From a virus, in IMG/VR virus record IMGVR_UViG_3300049215_000529, positions 62,001 to 126,000 of that record: a DNA stretch of 64,000 nt; one strand, 5' to 3'. Below the pieces are notes generated by a model. That model searched no databases. It was given only the letters and a program-made list of their open reading frames with translations, and was not told the origin of the DNA. Position numbers and translations under genes: made by a program. Below, piece by piece: positions 20,204 through 30,572 of the stretch. Numbering within the stretch: position 1 is the stretch's first letter; the number at the start of each line of letters is the position of its first letter.

Positions 20204-20821
20204 ATGACAGCTCGTATCCTGCAAAACCTAACTCATAAAATTCTAGTAGTCGGACCTGTTTACGATCAGTTAAGCAAGCTAGTAAAATTGGAAAGTTTAT
20301 TATCTGATTACTCACATATCATCGTTAATGGAAATCTTTGTTATCCAAATGATAATTTAGATGAGGTTCAAAAAAGAATTGACATTATGTCAGTACTTTG
20401 CAGCAGGGGAGTTATTTACAATTTGGGTAATTTTGATTTAAAACTATTAAGTAAATTAGAAGAATCGGGAGAATATCCCAAAATACAGAAATGGCTTAAA
20501 GAACACAACAATGTAGTAATTGCCCATTACCACGCTCAACCAACATACATAATTACTTCGGGTGGAATTACTCCTGAAATGACCAAAGAAGACATTGTGA
20601 ATGGGCTAGAAACGAGTTTTGTATCAAAGGTCAAAGATGCTCCATGGCATCGATGGTACGGTGGAGGACATGGCTACGTAATTTCCAATATGCCATTGAC
20701 CTTTAGTCCGCCCCAATTTTACAACTTTTCCGCCCAAATTGGAAATGTTTACCATGAAAAGGTAGAAGTTTATGCGCAAGAAGCGGGACCTGGTGGTTTG
20801 GGTCGCACTTTTCCCTTATAA
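20204..20821 (+). CDS. Degenerate calcineurin-like phosphoesterase
   Basis: The order of motifs follows metallophosphoesterases, but the metal ligands are altered: GDxH becomes VGPVYD, GDxxD becomes NGNLCY, and GNHE becomes LGNFD. Later histidines (IAHYHAQPTYI, HGYVISNMPL) are partly kept. Compare the intact enzyme at 49134-49859. It may have lost phosphatase activity. Start 20204 was chosen over an earlier frame that overlaps the divergent promoter region. Confidence 0.5.
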   Translation: MTARILQNLTHKILVVGPVYDQLSKLVKLESLLSDYSHIIVNGNLCYPNDNLDEVQKRIDIMSVLCSRGVIYNLGNFDLKLLSKLEESGEYPKIQKWLKEHNNVVIAHYHAQPTYIITSGGITPEMTKEDIVNGLETSFVSKVKDAPWHRWYGGGHGYVISNMPLTFSPPQFYNFSAQIGNVYHEKVEVYAQEAGPGGLGRTFPL

Positions 20822-25124: not shown

Positions 25125-26137
25125 GTATATTAGTTATCAAAATCAAACATAATGCCGATCTAACAGAACATTTGCGGAAGGCGGCGTTGGTAGCTAACTA
25201 TGCGATCAAAAATCGCATGAAATTATCATCAGTTAATGTCTCTAATATTGGTCTGCCTTCAGCAATTAGCAATCAAATTCTCCGCAAGTATGGCAAGAAC
25301 AAGAAGTGCAAGCGCATCAATCCAACGAAGATCAAGTTAGTAGCACCGGCACAGTCGATCAAGGTAGAAAGCTCTAAAATAAGAGTAGTACCTCTAAAAT
25401 TAACGCTAAACAATGAGAGTAAATATCAGATCGTAAAGGTCAAGCAGATTGAATTAGATGCTACTTATGCTTATGTTGCATTCGAGCAACAAGATCAGCC
25501 TATGCAACAATTGGAAAATTTTATTGGAGTTGATCTGAATGCAACATCTCATTGTGCGGTAGCTGCCGAACCTATTAGTGGTAAAGTTATTAAGCTTGGT
25601 AAGCAAGCACCTCATATACATAAGAAGTATAAGGCATTAAGAAGTAGTTTGCATAAGCAAAAATTATATAAGAAGTTGAAAGAAACAAAAGGTAAAGAAA
25701 CCAGAAAAGTAAAGTATCTTAATCATAAGATTAGCAAACAGATTGTTCAGTTTGCTAAAGACAACAATTGTGGTATCAAGTTAGAACAACTAACAGGTAT
25801 TCTCAATAGTAAAAAGAATAGTAAATCATTCCGTTATATTCTGAACTCTTGGAGCTACTATCAATTAGGCACAATGATCGCCTACAAAGCTCTACTTGCA
25901 GGTATTCCAGTATTGCATATTCGTCCAGCATACACCAGCCAAAACTGTAGTAAATGTGGCGAACTTGGAAAACGAAATGGTAAGAGGTTTAGCTGTTGTC
26001 ATTGCAAACACAGCGATCATGCGGATGTTAATGCGGCTTTCAATATCGCAAAGTCATCTGCCTTGATCACTTCCAAACAGACAGAGTTGTTTGGAAATGG
26101 TGCTACTGAAGCGCCTATGAGGCAATTCAATGTCTGA
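25121..26137 (+). CDS. tnpB: TnpB, RNA-guided RuvC nuclease of IS605
   Basis: RuvC motifs are all visible: FIGVDLNATS (first aspartate), GIKLEQLTGI (glutamate) and DHADVNAAFNIA (last aspartate), with the zinc ribbon CSKCG...CCHC between the last two. At 338 residues it is smaller than most characterised TnpBs (about 400). TnpB uses an omega RNA from the element's right end to cut empty target sites and promote retention. The ATG overlaps the tnpA stop (ATGA), so the two are coupled. Confidence 0.93.
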   Translation: MSILVIKIKHNADLTEHLRKAALVANYAIKNRMKLSSVNVSNIGLPSAISNQILRKYGKNKKCKRINPTKIKLVAPAQSIKVESSKIRVVPLKLTLNNESKYQIVKVKQIELDATYAYVAFEQQDQPMQQLENFIGVDLNATSHCAVAAEPISGKVIKLGKQAPHIHKKYKALRSSLHKQKLYKKLKETKGKETRKVKYLNHKISKQIVQFAKDNNCGIKLEQLTGILNSKKNSKSFRYILNSWSYYQLGTMIAYKALLAGIPVLHIRPAYTSQNCSKCGELGKRNGKRFSCCHCKHSDHADVNAAFNIAKSSALITSKQTELFGNGATEAPMRQFNV

Positions 26138-26190
26138 AGCAAGACTTTTGAAACCTCAGAACCCAACGACTTTAGTCGTTGGTTATTCAG
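26060..26190 (+). ncRNA. Candidate omega RNA at the IS right end
   Basis: The 3' end of tnpB and the right end contain a 9-bp hairpin (26071-26079 with 26088-26096) and the terminal palindrome (26163-26182). The decayed copy at 27660-27850 keeps the order but with different paired bases. This is where TnpB guide RNAs are encoded, with the guide beginning at the flank (26191). Boundaries are inferred. Confidence 0.4.
26163..26182 (+). repeat. IS right-end palindrome
   Basis: CCAACGACT and AGTCGTTGG pair around TT, eight bases before the right edge. An identical 20-base copy lies at 27668-27687. Confidence 0.85.
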
Positions 26191-26386: not shown

Positions 26387-26923
26387 TTATGCCTTTTGTT
26401 TAGTAGGCATAACTATCATACTCATAAATTTACCTTCCAAGGAAGTTGAGGGCGCAGGGGCAATCAAGCCAGCTAACTGCTGCAAAATCCAGTCCATCTT
26501 ATCCCTGCCTACTTGAGGATGGGTAATCTCACGACCACGGAAGCGAATAGTAAACTTAACTTTATGTCCCTCTGCCAAAAATTCTTTGGCTTGCTGAAGC
26601 TTGTGGTTCAAGTCATTCTCATCAGTATTGGGACGGAAAGTGAGTTCTTTCAATTCCTGAAGCCTTTGATTTTTCTTGGCTTCAGCCATTTTCTTTTTTT
26701 CTTCGTACTTATACTTACCGTAATCCATAATCTTACAGACAGGCGGAACAGCTCTTGGATTAATTTCTACCAAATCTAGGACTTGATCTTGAGCCATCTT
26801 AAGTGCATCACGTGTTGCCATGACGCCAGCATTGGTTCCATCGCTTAAAACCACACGAATTTGTGGGATGCGGATTTGATTGTTAATACGAATTCTTTGA
26901 TTAGTTGTTTGTGCGTTACTCAC
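26387..26923 (-). CDS. infC: Translation initiation factor IF-3
   Basis: The 178-residue protein has both IF-3 domains: the N-terminal NNQIRIPQIRVVLSDGTNAG with ALKMAQDQVLDLVEINP, and the C-terminal ELTFRPNTDENDLNHKLQQA, KVKFTIRFRGREITHP and the final MIVMPTKQK. IF-3 binds the 30S platform, keeps the subunits apart and checks start codons. Length and order equal the cellular protein. Translation starts at a GTG (26923) overlapping the upstream stop (GTGA). A phage copy next to tRNA and tmRNA genes fits ribosome takeover. Confidence 0.96.
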   Translation of the reverse strand: MSNAQTTNQRIRINNQIRIPQIRVVLSDGTNAGVMATRDALKMAQDQVLDLVEINPRAVPPVCKIMDYGKYKYEEKKKMAEAKKNQRLQELKELTFRPNTDENDLNHKLQQAKEFLAEGHKVKFTIRFRGREITHPQVGRDKMDWILQQLAGLIAPAPSTSLEGKFMSMIVMPTKQKA

Positions 26924-27279: not shown

Positions 27280-27659
27280 ACTCTTCCAGGCAAGATATAT
27301 CCAAAGTCCATTGTTTACGGCTGCGCATAACCCAAGTCCAAAAAGAGCCTTTAACATAAACATCAGCTTCTGGGCGCTTCATTTTATTGACTTTCATCAA
27401 ATGCTGAAGAGCCGCTTCGCCTTTACCTCGGGTTTGGGCGAGACCTATATGTTTAACCATGTGACAGTCGGGACACAAGGCAATCATACCTTCCAATTTT
27501 TGAATTAAATTCTTGTCGTCATAATTCCAAATTTCATGACATTCTACCGGATGCTTTGGACCGACTTCACCACAAATTTCACAAGTATGCCACGCTTTGC
27601 CATATACTTGAGATTTTACTGCATCCCATTGTTTCTGCGTTAATACAGAGCGAACATTG
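27248..27659 (-). pseudogene. HNH-like zinc protein, 5' end removed by an IS605 end
   Basis: The open frame reads FSNVRSVLTQKQWDAVKSQV and continues with HTCEICG, PVECHEIWNYDD, LCPDCHMVKHIGLAQTRGKG and a tail typical of a widespread bacterial HNH-like family. There is no in-frame start: the codons before it belong to the IS right end (27660 onward), which interrupts the gene near its N-terminus. An internal ATG at 27496 would give only the last 82 residues without the first cysteine pair. Confidence 0.75.
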
Positions 27660-27850
27660 CTGAATAACCAACGACTAAAGTCGTTGGGTTCCGAGGTTCA
27701 AAAAGCTTTTCTTCAAGCATTTGATTGCCTCATAAGCGTTTCAGTACCACTATTCCATATAGGCTTTTGCTATATGGAGTGAATAATTTTCTCAAATTAT
27801 TCAATGTCGAAAACCTGCTTTTATGAGCAGTTGTAAAAATATTACCACAG
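27660..27850 (-). mobile_element. Decayed IS605 right end (solo, no TnpB)
   Basis: The sequence repeats the right end of 24599-26190 in reverse orientation: TTATTCAG edge, identical palindrome (27668-27687), then similar sequence up to a hairpin (27755-27762 with 27770-27777). No intact tnpB is present; only a short frame with CGSCG remains on the minus strand. The homology becomes unclear beyond about 27780, so the inner boundary is approximate. Confidence 0.75.
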
Positions 27851-27920
27851 CTCCCACATTTTAGTTCAATTATTTTCATGTAATCACATATAACACGATG
27901 TGTGGAGGTGTTCAGTAATT

Positions 27921-28277
27921 TGGTGGAGATGTAGGGTACTGCCCCCTAGTCCGCGATATGCCCTTATCAAAACTCGTTCACAAACTTAGTCAATATCAAC
28001 GTCATTGACAACGTTGCTAGATTGTCGCTCTAGCGGGTTATTTACTGTTTATTTCAAATCCACAATCCGTAGCCGAATGTGGACTCTATCTTTAGTGGGT
28101 TGAATGTCCTTTGATTACCAAAGCTATCTCATCTGGGACATATCATCATGCGGCTAGCGCAAATGATTCAAATGCATTATCGTTTGCATTTATACGTCGA
28201 TTACTTTTGGAGGGGCAATCATCCTCTGTTTGCGTCATTCTGATAATTCGTTATCCCGTCGAATCTATGTCATCCCC
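27921..28277 (-). ncRNA. ssrA: tmRNA (complete), tag ANDNAFESFALAA
   Basis: tmRNA rescues stalled ribosomes by acting as alanine tRNA and then as a message for a degradation tag. The 5' end GGGGATG (28277-28271) pairs with CATCTCC before the 3' ACCA (27931-27921), including a G3-U pair, the alanine identity element. ATTCGACGGG follows the 5' stem. A P2 helix forms between TTATCAGAA and TTTTGATAA. The tag frame runs from GCA 28187 to GCA 28149, encodes ANDNAFESFALAA and ends TGATGA. A GGCTACG pseudoknot-like hairpin and GACTAAG follow. The T loop is GGCAGTA in place of TTCAA. Confidence 0.92.
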
Positions 28278-28451
28278 ATTTTTAGTTTTAAGCCATTCTA
28301 TTAAGTCAACAAAGAAATCAGAAACCTTCTGTGCAGCTTCTTTCTCTTCTAAGCCTAACCCATATTTTTTATCCTGCAACCAATAAGATAGTTGAGGCGA
28401 GCCAGGACATTTAGGAAATTTCTGTCTACGAAAACTCTGATACTCTTCCAT
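28251..28451 (-). CDS. Small hypothetical protein between the two tmRNA genes (66 aa)
   Basis: The product (start MEEYQSFRRQKFPKCPGS, centre GLGLEEKEAAQKVSDFF) looks like a real helical protein, but no Shine-Dalgarno site precedes ATG 28451. Its last nine codons lie inside the 5' end of the complete tmRNA. It occupies the position where the 3' half of the upstream tmRNA copy would be expected. It could also be a fragment of a mobile gene. No family recognised. Confidence 0.45.
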   Translation of the reverse strand: MEEYQSFRRQKFPKCPGSPQLSYWLQDKKYGLGLEEKEAAQKVSDFFVDLIEWLKTKNGDDIDSTG

Positions 28452-28460
28452 GAGATCAAT

Positions 28461-28746
28461 CGAGATACTTAGTCATTGGCAACAAAGACAGATAATCGCT
28501 CCATCGAGCTATCTACTGTTAATCTTATTATCATACATCGTAGCCCTATATGATAACCAGCTTTGTGGGTTGACGTTCTTTTGATTACTCAAGCAGTCTT
28601 ATCTCAGAACGTATGGGCCTTACTCAGGCAGCCATAGCATATGCATTATCGTTTGCATTTATTACGTTGATTACTTTGGTAGGTGTAATCGCCTCTGTCT
28701 GAATCATTTTGTCAATTCTTTACCACGTCGAAACCCGTGCATGCCC
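28461..28746 (-). ncRNA. Second tmRNA-type gene, 3' truncated, tag ANDNAYAMAA
   Basis: This segment matches the complete tmRNA from the 5' end (GGGCATGCACGGGTTTCGACG, 28746 on) through the tag frame (GCA 28656 to GCC 28627, then TGA), the GGCTACG hairpin and GACTAAG. Paired bases differ between copies while pairing is kept (for example TTATCATA/TATGATAA here versus TCCACA/TGTGGA). After about 28461 the P2 return strand, T arm and CCA end are missing, so it cannot form an acceptor stem alone. It may be a relic, or need another RNA. Confidence 0.8.
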
Positions 28747-28748
28747 TT

Positions 28749-28772
28749 AAATAAAACCCGCATTGTGCGGGT
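28749..28772 (-). terminator. Terminator directly after tRNA-Thr(CGT)
   Basis: The 7-bp stem ACCCGCA/TGCGGGT with loop TTG is followed on the minus strand by TTTATTT. It begins one base after the tRNA CCA and ends just before the second tmRNA copy. Confidence 0.75.
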
Positions 28773-28847
28773 TGGAGCTGATGATCGGTACTGCCCCGAT
28801 GCTATCTCGTTACGAGTGAGATGTTCTGCTATTTAAACTACATCAGC
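28773..28847 (-). tRNA. tRNA-Thr (anticodon CGT) with unusual T and D loops
   Basis: The acceptor GCTGATG/CATCAGC is perfect and CCA is encoded. The anticodon loop CTCGTAA sits on stem TCTCA/CGAGA with one A-C mismatch. The T stem ATCGG/CCGAT carries the non-canonical loop GGCAGTA, identical to that of the tmRNA at 27921-28277, and the D loop AAATAGCA lacks the usual GG. The 5' 15 bases overlap the HNH coding sequence. Confidence 0.85.
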
Positions 28848-29477
28848 TTTTATAGCGGCTATAACTTCTTTTTCAATCTTATAGCGTTTAGCCCTTTCAA
28901 ATCTACCATTACCTTTATTACGACCTGCAAAAGTAGGTGTTTGAGCGTCACAATTATGGCAGATTAATCGTAGATTACATATGCTGCTATCATGTGGGTT
29001 ACCATCAATATGATCCATAACTAAAGGAACGGGTTTGTTCATCCATTCTGTGATAAAGCAAATTTCACATCGAACGCCTCTTGTTTCTAAGAGAAAATTT
29101 TTTAACCTGCGTACCGATACATTTCTATTATCAGAAGATAATAATTCTTCTTTACTAGACTTCCACTCAAAATCTTTTTGACAAGAATTGCTACAAAATT
29201 TACGATTAGCTCTAGCTGCCTTTTTACCACAAGCTAAACAATTAGAAGCTTCTTGACCGTGCCTTCTAACACCTTTATTGTTGAAAGCGGCACCACATGA
29301 TTGGTTGCAAAAATCATTATATCTTTTCTCATAAGAGATAGGTGCATTGCAAAACTTGCATAATTTTGGATTGGCATTCCAATCATCGATGCGATTTTGT
29401 TTTCGCATAGCTGCTGTTTTTGCAGCTTCAATTCCGCCTAATTTACCAGCTTCACTGGTGGTCAGCCCTTGTCTCAT
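28833..29477 (-). CDS. HNH homing endonuclease between tRNA genes
   Basis: Several zinc pairs (CKFC/CNQSC, CLAC/CSNSC) precede the HNH core: CEICFI, VMDHIDGNPHD, LRLICHNCDAQTPTF. I chose start 29477 (MRQGLTTSEAGKLGG) because a longer frame would run through tRNA-Thr(GGT). The final codons and stop lie within the 5' end of tRNA-Thr(CGT), so gene and tRNA share 15 bases. Such nucleases typically spread by cutting alleles that lack them. Confidence 0.88.
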   Translation of the reverse strand: MRQGLTTSEAGKLGGIEAAKTAAMRKQNRIDDWNANPKLCKFCNAPISYEKRYNDFCNQSCGAAFNNKGVRRHGQEASNCLACGKKAARANRKFCSNSCQKDFEWKSSKEELLSSDNRNVSVRRLKNFLLETRGVRCEICFITEWMNKPVPLVMDHIDGNPHDSSICNLRLICHNCDAQTPTFAGRNKGNGRFERAKRYKIEKEVIAAIKADVV

Positions 29478-29518
29478 ATGAATGAATATATCAGCTAATT
29501 TTAGGATTCGAACTTTAT

Positions 29519-29593
29519 TGGAGCTGTAGGTGGGGATCGAACCCACGACCACTACTTTACCAAAGTAGTATTCTACCACTGAACTACTACAGC
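29519..29593 (-). tRNA. tRNA-Thr (anticodon GGT)
   Basis: The acceptor GCTGTAG/CTACAGC, anticodon stem CTACT/AGTAG with loop TTGGTAA, T loop TTCGATC and encoded CCA are all canonical. Confidence 0.96.
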
Positions 29594-29653
29594 TTATTCG
29601 GTTTCAGCTTGTTTCGTACCCAGTATATTCACCGAAAACTTTAACCTGGGACT

Positions 29654-29728
29654 TGGAGCTGGTGCCGAGAATCGAACTCGGGTCTCTGCGTTACAAGGGC
29701 AGGGTCTTACCATTAGGACGAAACCAGC
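29654..29728 (-). tRNA. tRNA-Thr (anticodon TGT)
   Basis: The anticodon loop CTTGTAA reads ACA codons; the T arm CCGAG/CTCGG with TTCGATT is canonical and CCA is encoded. Mismatches are present at 7-66 (T-C) and 31-39 (C-C). It is the first gene behind the promoter at 29741-29768. Confidence 0.93.
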
Positions 29729-29740
29729 TTACGTGTACAT

Positions 29741-29768
29741 ATTATAACACTTTATTCCCATGTGTCAA
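29741..29768 (-). promoter_or_regulatory. Consensus sigma70 promoter of the tRNA/tmRNA cluster
   Basis: The minus strand reads TTGACA (29768-29763), 16 bases, TATAAT (29746-29741), both perfect consensus. Transcription would begin about seven bases later, just before tRNA-Thr(TGT), pointing to use of host RNA polymerase. Confidence 0.85.
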
Positions 29769-29786
29769 CCGCCCCAAATTAAAAAA

Positions 29787-30572
29787 TTATTGTGGGGCTC
29801 GGAAAATATCGGATCCATGTTTAAAAATATTCGATAAAAAGGATTGGTCCTTGGTGAAAATAGGCAGGTCCGGACTGACCATCCATTTATTCTTCATGGT
29901 ACCATCTTCCATTATCTTAGGCGCCTTATAACAAGCAGCACCTCTCCTAAAAGCCATGGGGCAGTTATTAAAATCAATGTTGGCTTCCTGATTCAATAAA
30001 TCAATCTTTTCATCAACACTCATTCCACTCAACATGTCTTTGATGGTATTTTTATCGTACTTCTTTAATAGTTCATAGAAGCAAGCAGATTGAATAGAAG
30101 TATGAAAATTATTCTGCTGCTTATGTACTAAAGTATTGATGGCTTCCATAATATTCGGTACGGCAAATACTTGAGAGGTGAAGATTGCATCTCCCATTAG
30201 ATTCAAGTCTATAGCGCTGGCACACTTATTGAAGTGCAGAGTAGCGATGGCAGCAGTAACCGAGGCAATCTTTTGGACGCGATTGTCATACCATGGAGTC
30301 GTTTCCTGACTTTGATCATTGCGGGCGATGATTACAATTTCATCATTGTGTTGGTAAGCAAAAAGGGCGCCTTCAACCTCGGTGCAAAGTTTCAACATGG
30401 TTGACATGATGCATTCTGAAAACTTGGGACAGTATGGCTTATCCAATAGCGAAGTCAGCTTAGAGAACGCCCTTCCATTGACACAAATGACAATGGGTAG
30501 ACGAGCTAGAAGCTTGGTGTCTGACGATTCCCGATAGGAATCGATTCTGTCTTTCAGTTTTAGATTTGACAT
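29787..30572 (-). CDS. Thg1-like (tRNA-His guanylyltransferase-like) protein
   Basis: The sequence RLPIVICVNGRAFSKLTSLL and the later GALFAYQHNDEIVII match the palm domain of Thg1 (IDGR... and SDEI). Thg1-like proteins add nucleotides in the 3'-5' direction to repair tRNA 5' ends. The metal aspartate of IDGR is replaced by N32, while D77 and E78 are kept, so catalysis may be weakened or lost. It lies next to four tRNA genes, one of which has stem mismatches. Phage Thg1-like proteins are known. Confidence 0.8.
   Translation of the reverse strand: MSNLKLKDRIDSYRESSDTKLLARLPIVICVNGRAFSKLTSLLDKPYCPKFSECIMSTMLKLCTEVEGALFAYQHNDEIVIIARNDQSQETTPWYDNRVQKIASVTAAIATLHFNKCASAIDLNLMGDAIFTSQVFAVPNIMEAINTLVHKQQNNFHTSIQSACFYELLKKYDKNTIKDMLSGMSVDEKIDLLNQEANIDFNNCPMAFRRGAACYKAPKIMEDGTMKNKWMVSPDLPIFTKDQSFLSNIFKHGSDIFRAPQ

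What the first reader, a model, noticed from the sequence alone, without database searches (positions are those of the whole stretch)
27921..28746. Two tandem tmRNA-type genes with different degradation tags
Two minus-strand non-coding segments share the ATTCGACG-type 5' motif, the tag frame after GCAAACGAT, a GGCTACG hairpin and GACTAAG. The downstream copy (27921-28277) is complete: a 7-bp acceptor with G3-U, CCA, P2 helix and tag ANDNAFESFALAA. The upstream copy (28461-28746) encodes ANDNAYAMAA but ends before its T arm and CCA. Paired bases differ between copies while pairing is maintained, which argues that both were selected as RNAs. tmRNA in phages is uncommon and a tandem pair with distinct tags is, to my knowledge, not described.
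Basis: partly seen in the sequence, partly recalled or inferred. Interest (0 to 1): 0.9.

Follow-up and report, generated by a model that had tools for sequence, protein, structure and literature searches.

The report
Huge-phage tmRNA plus truncated second copy
A very large bacterial virus carries one complete tmRNA (the RNA that frees stuck ribosomes and tags the unfinished protein) and, just before it, a second tmRNA with a different tag that has lost the end that must carry alanine, so it is most likely a leftover of recombination and not a second working gene.

Summary
On the minus strand, 27921-28277 is a complete one-piece tmRNA (Rfam 96 bits, E 3e-36; tag ANDNAFESFALAA). 28457-28746 is a second tmRNA body with tag ANDNAYAMAA. 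It scores 41 bits, below the family cut-off, and lacks the 3' P2 strand, T arm, 3' acceptor strand and CCA. No trans 3' piece was found. In three tested helices the copies differ by 14 double compensatory changes with no broken pair, so both were shaped as RNAs.

The context is new. All 15 related phage contigs tested carry one complete tmRNA, and only this phage has two copies. The copies come from different tmRNA lineages and are mosaics. The downstream copy has the ends of one lineage (93% to G019) and the middle of another (57% to G019, 71% to G009). The upstream copy carries the middle of the first lineage.

Best reading: one working phage tmRNA that uses host SmpB, plus a truncated relic left when two tmRNA lineages recombined. 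Phage tmRNAs and one-ended tmRNA pseudogenes are known. A tandem, differently tagged pair was not found in the papers searched. The odd T-loop GGCAGUA, at first striking, is the ordinary alphaproteobacterial tmRNA loop.

The parts
27921..28277 (-). complete one-piece tmRNA gene (downstream copy)
   Evidence: RF00023 96.1 bits, E 3.2e-36, model 1-374 of 374
28146..28187 (-). tag reading frame ANDNAFESFALAA + stop of the downstream tmRNA
   Evidence: translation; long-tag class shared with G009, G010, G011, G020, G021
27932..27948 (-). T arm of the downstream tmRNA, stem UAGGG/CCCUA, loop GGCAGUA (alphaproteobacterial type)
28457..28746 (-). truncated tmRNA body (upstream copy): acceptor 5' strand, D-loop, 5' P2, PK1, tag, P5, PK2, PK3, most of PK4; 3' P2, T arm, acceptor 3' strand and CCA missing
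   Evidence: RF00023 41.2 bits below gathering 47; covariation; 3' end at shuffle level
28624..28656 (-). tag reading frame ANDNAYAMAA + stop of the upstream copy
   Evidence: translation
28776..28847 (-). tRNA-Thr(CGU)-like gene whose T-loop (GGCAGUA) and D-loop (AUAGCA) are of tmRNA type
   Evidence: RF00005 44.3 bits; same loop as the downstream tmRNA; relatives' tRNA-Thr(CGU) is canonical
28755..28773 (-). terminator-like hairpin between the tRNA and the upstream tmRNA copy; also present in relative L036
28251..28451 (-). 66-codon ORF over the lost 3' end of the upstream copy and into the downstream tmRNA; orphan, probably chance
   Evidence: no relative in viral contigs except the same phage; no PHROGs hit
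29741..29768 (-). perfect sigma-70 promoter match (TTGACA-16-TATAAT with TG) ahead of the Thr-tRNA/tmRNA cluster
   Evidence: a similar sequence is seen in L036, L037 and L039
29657..29728 (-). tRNA-Thr(UGU)
29519..29593 (-). tRNA-Thr(GGU)
29787..30572 (-). tRNA-His guanylyltransferase (Thg1-like) gene, the syntenic marker used to find relatives
   Evidence: phrog_4717 E 1e-42

Best explanation
The downstream RNA is a working one-piece tmRNA of a huge phage. It is expected to be cut out of a tRNA-tmRNA transcript, charged with alanine through G3-U70, brought to stalled ribosomes by host SmpB and EF-Tu, and to add the tag ANDNAFESFALAA for proteolysis, keeping ribosomes in circulation during infection. 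The upstream RNA is a truncated relic of a second tmRNA of another lineage. Two tmRNA lineages met in one genome and exchanged their middle parts; one recombinant kept both ends and works, the other kept the tag and pseudoknots but lost its 3' P2 strand, T arm and acceptor strand. Shown by sequence: completeness of one copy, truncation of the other, covariation, mosaic ancestry, conserved synteny. Inferred: transcription, processing, charging, activity, and the order of events.
For: Full-length RF00023 match with CCA and G3-U70. All 15 related contigs carry one complete tmRNA. No SmpB gene in the 204-kb record or in 17 related contigs, so host SmpB must serve. Upstream copy below gathering, its 3' part at shuffle level, and no 3' partner with a T stem of 5 pairs and all 7 acceptor pairs. 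Mosaic: downstream versus G019 is 93% at both ends and 57% in the middle (P 2e-14); downstream groups with G019 on the ends (support 98) and inside the long-tag group on the middle (support 100), while the upstream 5' part groups with G014 (86) and its middle is closest to G016/G019 (82%, 81%).
Against: The three tested helices of the upstream copy have no broken pair against G019/G016/G002 (6 double changes, 0 lost), so either truncation is recent or the RNA still has a use. PK1 stem 1 is already weakened. No closer relative with an intact upstream copy was found. Recombination order is inferred from single genes of 90-140 nt; several tree nodes have weak support.
Confidence: 0.8

Rival explanations
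1. Both copies work as tmRNAs: the upstream RNA gets its missing acceptor half in trans, as in two-piece tmRNAs, so the phage uses two tags.
For: Tag, PK1-PK3 and tag context intact with compensatory changes. A permuted-tmRNA model gives 46 bits over the tRNA-Thr and the upstream 5' part.
Against: The 46 bits are an artefact of a tRNA next to a tmRNA 5' end: relative L036, whose tmRNA is complete and one-piece, scores 60 bits in the same place. The tRNA acceptor (CAUCAGC) does not pair with GGGCAUG. A scan of the 204-kb record found no site with all 7 acceptor pairs plus a full T stem; RF00023 finds no other acceptor half in contig G001, which covers more of the genome. The 3' P2 strand is absent too.
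Confidence: 0.06
2. The upstream RNA is kept as a tmRNA-like RNA without a tRNA part, with a regulatory or decoy role, for example binding a protein that recognises the pseudoknot ring, or acting as a processed leader of the operon.
For: Unbroken helices with compensatory changes. A phage RNA that keeps only the tRNA-like part (DS6A) inhibits tmRNA when expressed in E. coli (PMC4131195, PMC11915505), so phage tmRNA fragments can act.
Against: Known SmpB and EF-Tu contacts are in the tRNA-like part, which is missing (established knowledge). Not conserved in any of 15 relatives.
Confidence: 0.12
3. Assembly artefact: two strains' tmRNA alleles were joined side by side.
For: Metagenomic record; mosaic sequence; two contigs of another record set break nearby (27660-27786).
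Against: A second record (contig 3300047462_000385) spans the whole two-copy region and is 100% identical over 14,184 bp. The contig break lies downstream of the tmRNAs, at a 95-bp repeat. It is not known, though, that the two records come from independent samples.
Confidence: 0.04

Closest known systems
One-piece tmRNA (Rfam RF00023), including phage tmRNAs such as those of Bacillus phage G and mycobacteriophages Bxz1 and Wildcat (PMC4131195)
   Same: Downstream copy: all parts, G3-U70, CCA, Ala-led tag, four pseudoknot regions
   Different: D/T-loop elbow of alphaproteobacterial type in a one-piece gene; mosaic middle; followed from a Thr-tRNA cluster next to a Thg1-like gene
[quoted passage not shown]
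   Same: Upstream copy lacks one gene end and sits beside a complete gene
   Different: In a phage; tag and three tested helices intact with compensatory changes; different tag from the intact gene
Alphaproteobacterial permuted two-piece tmRNA (RF01849 / RF04321)
   Same: T-loop GGCAGUR with A18-G19 type D-loop
   Different: Downstream copy is not permuted; acceptor strands are in normal order
Tag-less tmRNA of mycobacteriophage DS6A
   Same: A phage-borne partial tmRNA
   Different: DS6A keeps the tRNA-like part and lacks the tag; here the upstream copy is the reverse

Membership tests
tmRNA, one-piece (RF00023): downstream copy | Covariance-model match over full length above the gathering score | tested here: met
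   96.1 bits, 1-374, cut-off 47
tmRNA, one-piece (RF00023): downstream copy | Alanine identity G3-U70 and 3' CCA | tested here: met
   GGGGAUG/CAUCUCC + ACCA in the alignment
tmRNA, one-piece (RF00023): downstream copy | Tag frame starting with a resume Ala codon and ending at a stop, proteolysis-type C-end | tested here: met
   ANDNAFESFALAA
tmRNA, one-piece (RF00023): downstream copy | Stable RNA, alanylation, trans-translation activity | not testable with these tools
   needs infected cells
tmRNA, one-piece (RF00023): upstream copy | Covariance-model match above the gathering score | tested here: not met
   41.2 bits versus 47
tmRNA, one-piece (RF00023): upstream copy | Closed acceptor stem, T arm, CCA | tested here: not met
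   3' 75 nt at shuffle level
tmRNA, one-piece (RF00023): upstream copy | Tag frame and pseudoknot helices | tested here: met
   ANDNAYAMAA; P5, PK2, PK3 fully paired with 6 double changes against G019 and 0 lost
Permuted two-piece tmRNA (RF04321): tRNA-Thr + upstream copy | Score above gathering and acceptor strands that pair | tested here: not met
   46.0 versus 47 bits; control L036 gives 60.4 with a complete one-piece tmRNA
Intron-interrupted tmRNA (group I intron in the T-loop) | Group I intron match after an intact 3' P2 strand | tested here: not met
   no intron family in 27500-30000 and no 3' P2 strand

The most novel reading that the evidence does not exclude
The upstream RNA is a retained, functional tmRNA body without a tRNA-like part (the reverse of the DS6A case), or takes its acceptor half in trans, giving the phage a second tag or a decoy/regulator of trans-translation.
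Probability: 0.12. Interest if true: 0.7.

Novelty: new member of a known kind. Interest (0 to 1): 0.35.

Why it matters
It shows that a complete tmRNA is a conserved gene of a huge-phage clade, next to a Thg1-like gene and Thr-tRNAs, and that phage tmRNAs evolve by exchange of their middle (tag and pseudoknots) against constant ends. The clade has two tag classes (about 10 aa ending AMAA/AEAA, and 12-13 aa ending ALAA/AQAA), so tag choice can be swapped by recombination. ARAGORN, which is widely used for phage annotation, missed every clade member with the alphaproteobacterial-type T-loop, so phage tmRNA counts made with it are probably too low.

Tried and rejected
(1) Novel T-loop: GGCAGUA plus an A18-type D-loop in the downstream tmRNA looked new and covaries across the clade, but a scan of public genomes shows it is the usual loop of alphaproteobacterial and some Saccharibacteria tmRNAs (98 of 117 hits have a permuted tmRNA with pairing acceptor strands), and U-to-G changes there are noted for Caulobacter and Reclinomonas (PMC1168896). 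(2) Trans 3' half for the upstream copy: no candidate with 7 of 7 acceptor pairs and a full T stem in the 204-kb record; CATGTCCTCCA at 20662-20672(-) has no T arm. (3) Permuted gene with the tRNA-Thr as acceptor piece: rejected by the L036 control. (4) A remnant 3' acceptor strand AUGUCC at the expected length (about 28411-28406): not significant. (5) Group I intron in the upstream copy: none. (6) The 66-codon ORF as an inserted gene: no relatives. (7) 76-nt 'tmRNA' matches of 36-50 bits in relatives look like tRNAs, not tag-less tmRNAs (inspection of sequences). (8) A published 485-kb phage record, LR745208.1, which matches the region only over 79 bp, has no tmRNA match.

Full report
Setting. 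The window is 62,001-126,000 of a 204,190-bp virus record from IMG/VR. Two contigs of another record set match it at 100% and together reach about 324 kb (contig lengths), so the phage is a huge phage. The locus lies on the minus strand behind a Thg1-like gene: a perfect sigma-70 promoter match (29768-29741), tRNA-Thr(UGU), tRNA-Thr(GGU), an ORF with an HNH-endonuclease match, a tRNA-Thr(CGU)-like gene, a terminator-like hairpin, the upstream tmRNA copy and the downstream tmRNA copy.

Downstream copy. RF00023 aligns over its whole length with 96.1 bits (E 3.2e-36). Acceptor GGGGAUG/CAUCUCC with G3-U70, ACCA, P2, PK1, P5 and PK2-PK4 are present. The tag is ANDNAFESFALAA. ARAGORN misses it in the window and alone. 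It also misses every relative with the same kind of T-loop, as well as G010, G014 and G020.

Upstream copy. The sequence from 28746 to about 28457 matches tmRNA with 41.2 bits, below the cut-off. Tag ANDNAYAMAA. The 3' P2 strand, T arm, 3' acceptor strand and CCA are missing; the 75 nt in their place are no more tmRNA-like than shuffles. In relatives G017 and G012 the motif GACTAAG also lies inside PK4, so the upstream GACTAAG does not mark the start of P2.

Selection as RNA. On an alignment of 17 tmRNA middles, three helices (20 pairs) pair in 88% of cells, against 59% in shuffles and 38-48% when slid; 19 of 20 pairs show changes on both sides. Upstream against G019: 12 same, 1 one-sided, 6 double, 1 gained, 0 lost. 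Upstream against downstream: 6 same, 14 double, 0 lost. The helix columns were laid out on the upstream sequence, which favours it somewhat; the count among other sequences does not depend on that. PK1 stem 1 of the upstream copy is weakened (by eye).

Relatives. Thg1 and tmRNA motifs brought in related contigs. All 15 relatives tested have one complete tmRNA; only this phage (and its second record, G008) shows a second copy. The relatives are mostly fragments, so absence of a second copy elsewhere in those genomes is not proven. No SmpB gene was found in G000 or in 17 related contigs, so a phage tmRNA would depend on host SmpB.

Mosaic origin. The downstream copy matches G019 at 84/90 positions in the 5' part and 70/75 in the 3' part but only 79/139 in the middle (P 2e-14); its middle is closest to G009 (98/139), a long-tag relative. 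The upstream copy has its 5' part closest to G014 (72/90) and its middle closest to G016/G019 (112/137, 111/137). Trees agree: ends put downstream with G019 (98), the middle puts it in the long-tag group (100), the 5' part puts upstream with G014 (86); other nodes are weak. The simplest reading is that two tmRNA lineages were present together and exchanged middles, leaving one complete recombinant and one truncated one. The order of events is inference.

The elbow. The downstream tmRNA has T-loop GGCAGUA and D-loop AGAUUCGAC. In the clade the change G18 to A goes with U55 to G: six tmRNAs have A with GC-type loops, ten have GG with UC-type loops. A scan of public genomes shows that GGCAGUR is the usual loop in alphaproteobacterial permuted tmRNAs, and related U-to-G changes are in print (PMC1168896). 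It is therefore not new. What remains odd is that the tRNA-Thr(CGU)-like gene at 28776-28847 has the same loop, while the same gene in relatives has a canonical loop.

Known background. tmRNA genes in phages are known: 402 of 18,146 genomes in one survey (PMC9004378), ten listed phages in another (PMC4131195), and huge phages (PMC7162821). tmRNA pseudogenes missing one end are known in bacteria (PMC4131195). Searches of the open-access library found no report of two tmRNA genes in tandem in a phage; subscription papers were not covered.

Verdict. One complete phage tmRNA (shown by sequence, activity inferred) and one truncated tmRNA of a different tag class, most likely a relic. Interest is moderate: a clear evolutionary snapshot and a useful warning on annotation tools, not a new kind of system.

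Noticed in passing
window 28776-28847 (-): A tRNA-Thr(CGU)-like gene carries the T-loop GGCAGUA and an AG-type D-loop normally found in alphaproteobacterial tmRNA; ARAGORN misses it, Rfam gives 44 bits. Relatives' copies are canonical.
   Followed up: partly
L037, L039, L036 and other Thg1/tmRNA loci: A conserved Thg1-like gene, Thr-tRNA cluster and tmRNA neighbourhood in a clade of huge phages (contigs up to 481 kb).
   Followed up: yes
G016, G002, L037 tmRNAs: Their T-loop is only six bases (UGCAAU), and G010 and G020 have eight-base T-loops; all with CCA and G3-U70-type acceptors.
   Followed up: no
window 26387-26923 (-): Phage translation initiation factor (IF3-like, phrog_9787 E 6e-51) close to the tmRNAs.
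   Followed up: no
window 26096-26190 and 27660-27754: A 95-bp inverted repeat, 85% identical, next to the tmRNA locus; assembly contigs of a second record set break there.
   Followed up: no
Viral-contig scan, L095-L214: At least 105 viral contigs carry permuted, alphaproteobacterial-type tmRNA genes (scan stopped at its limit), so phage two-piece tmRNAs are common.
   Followed up: partly
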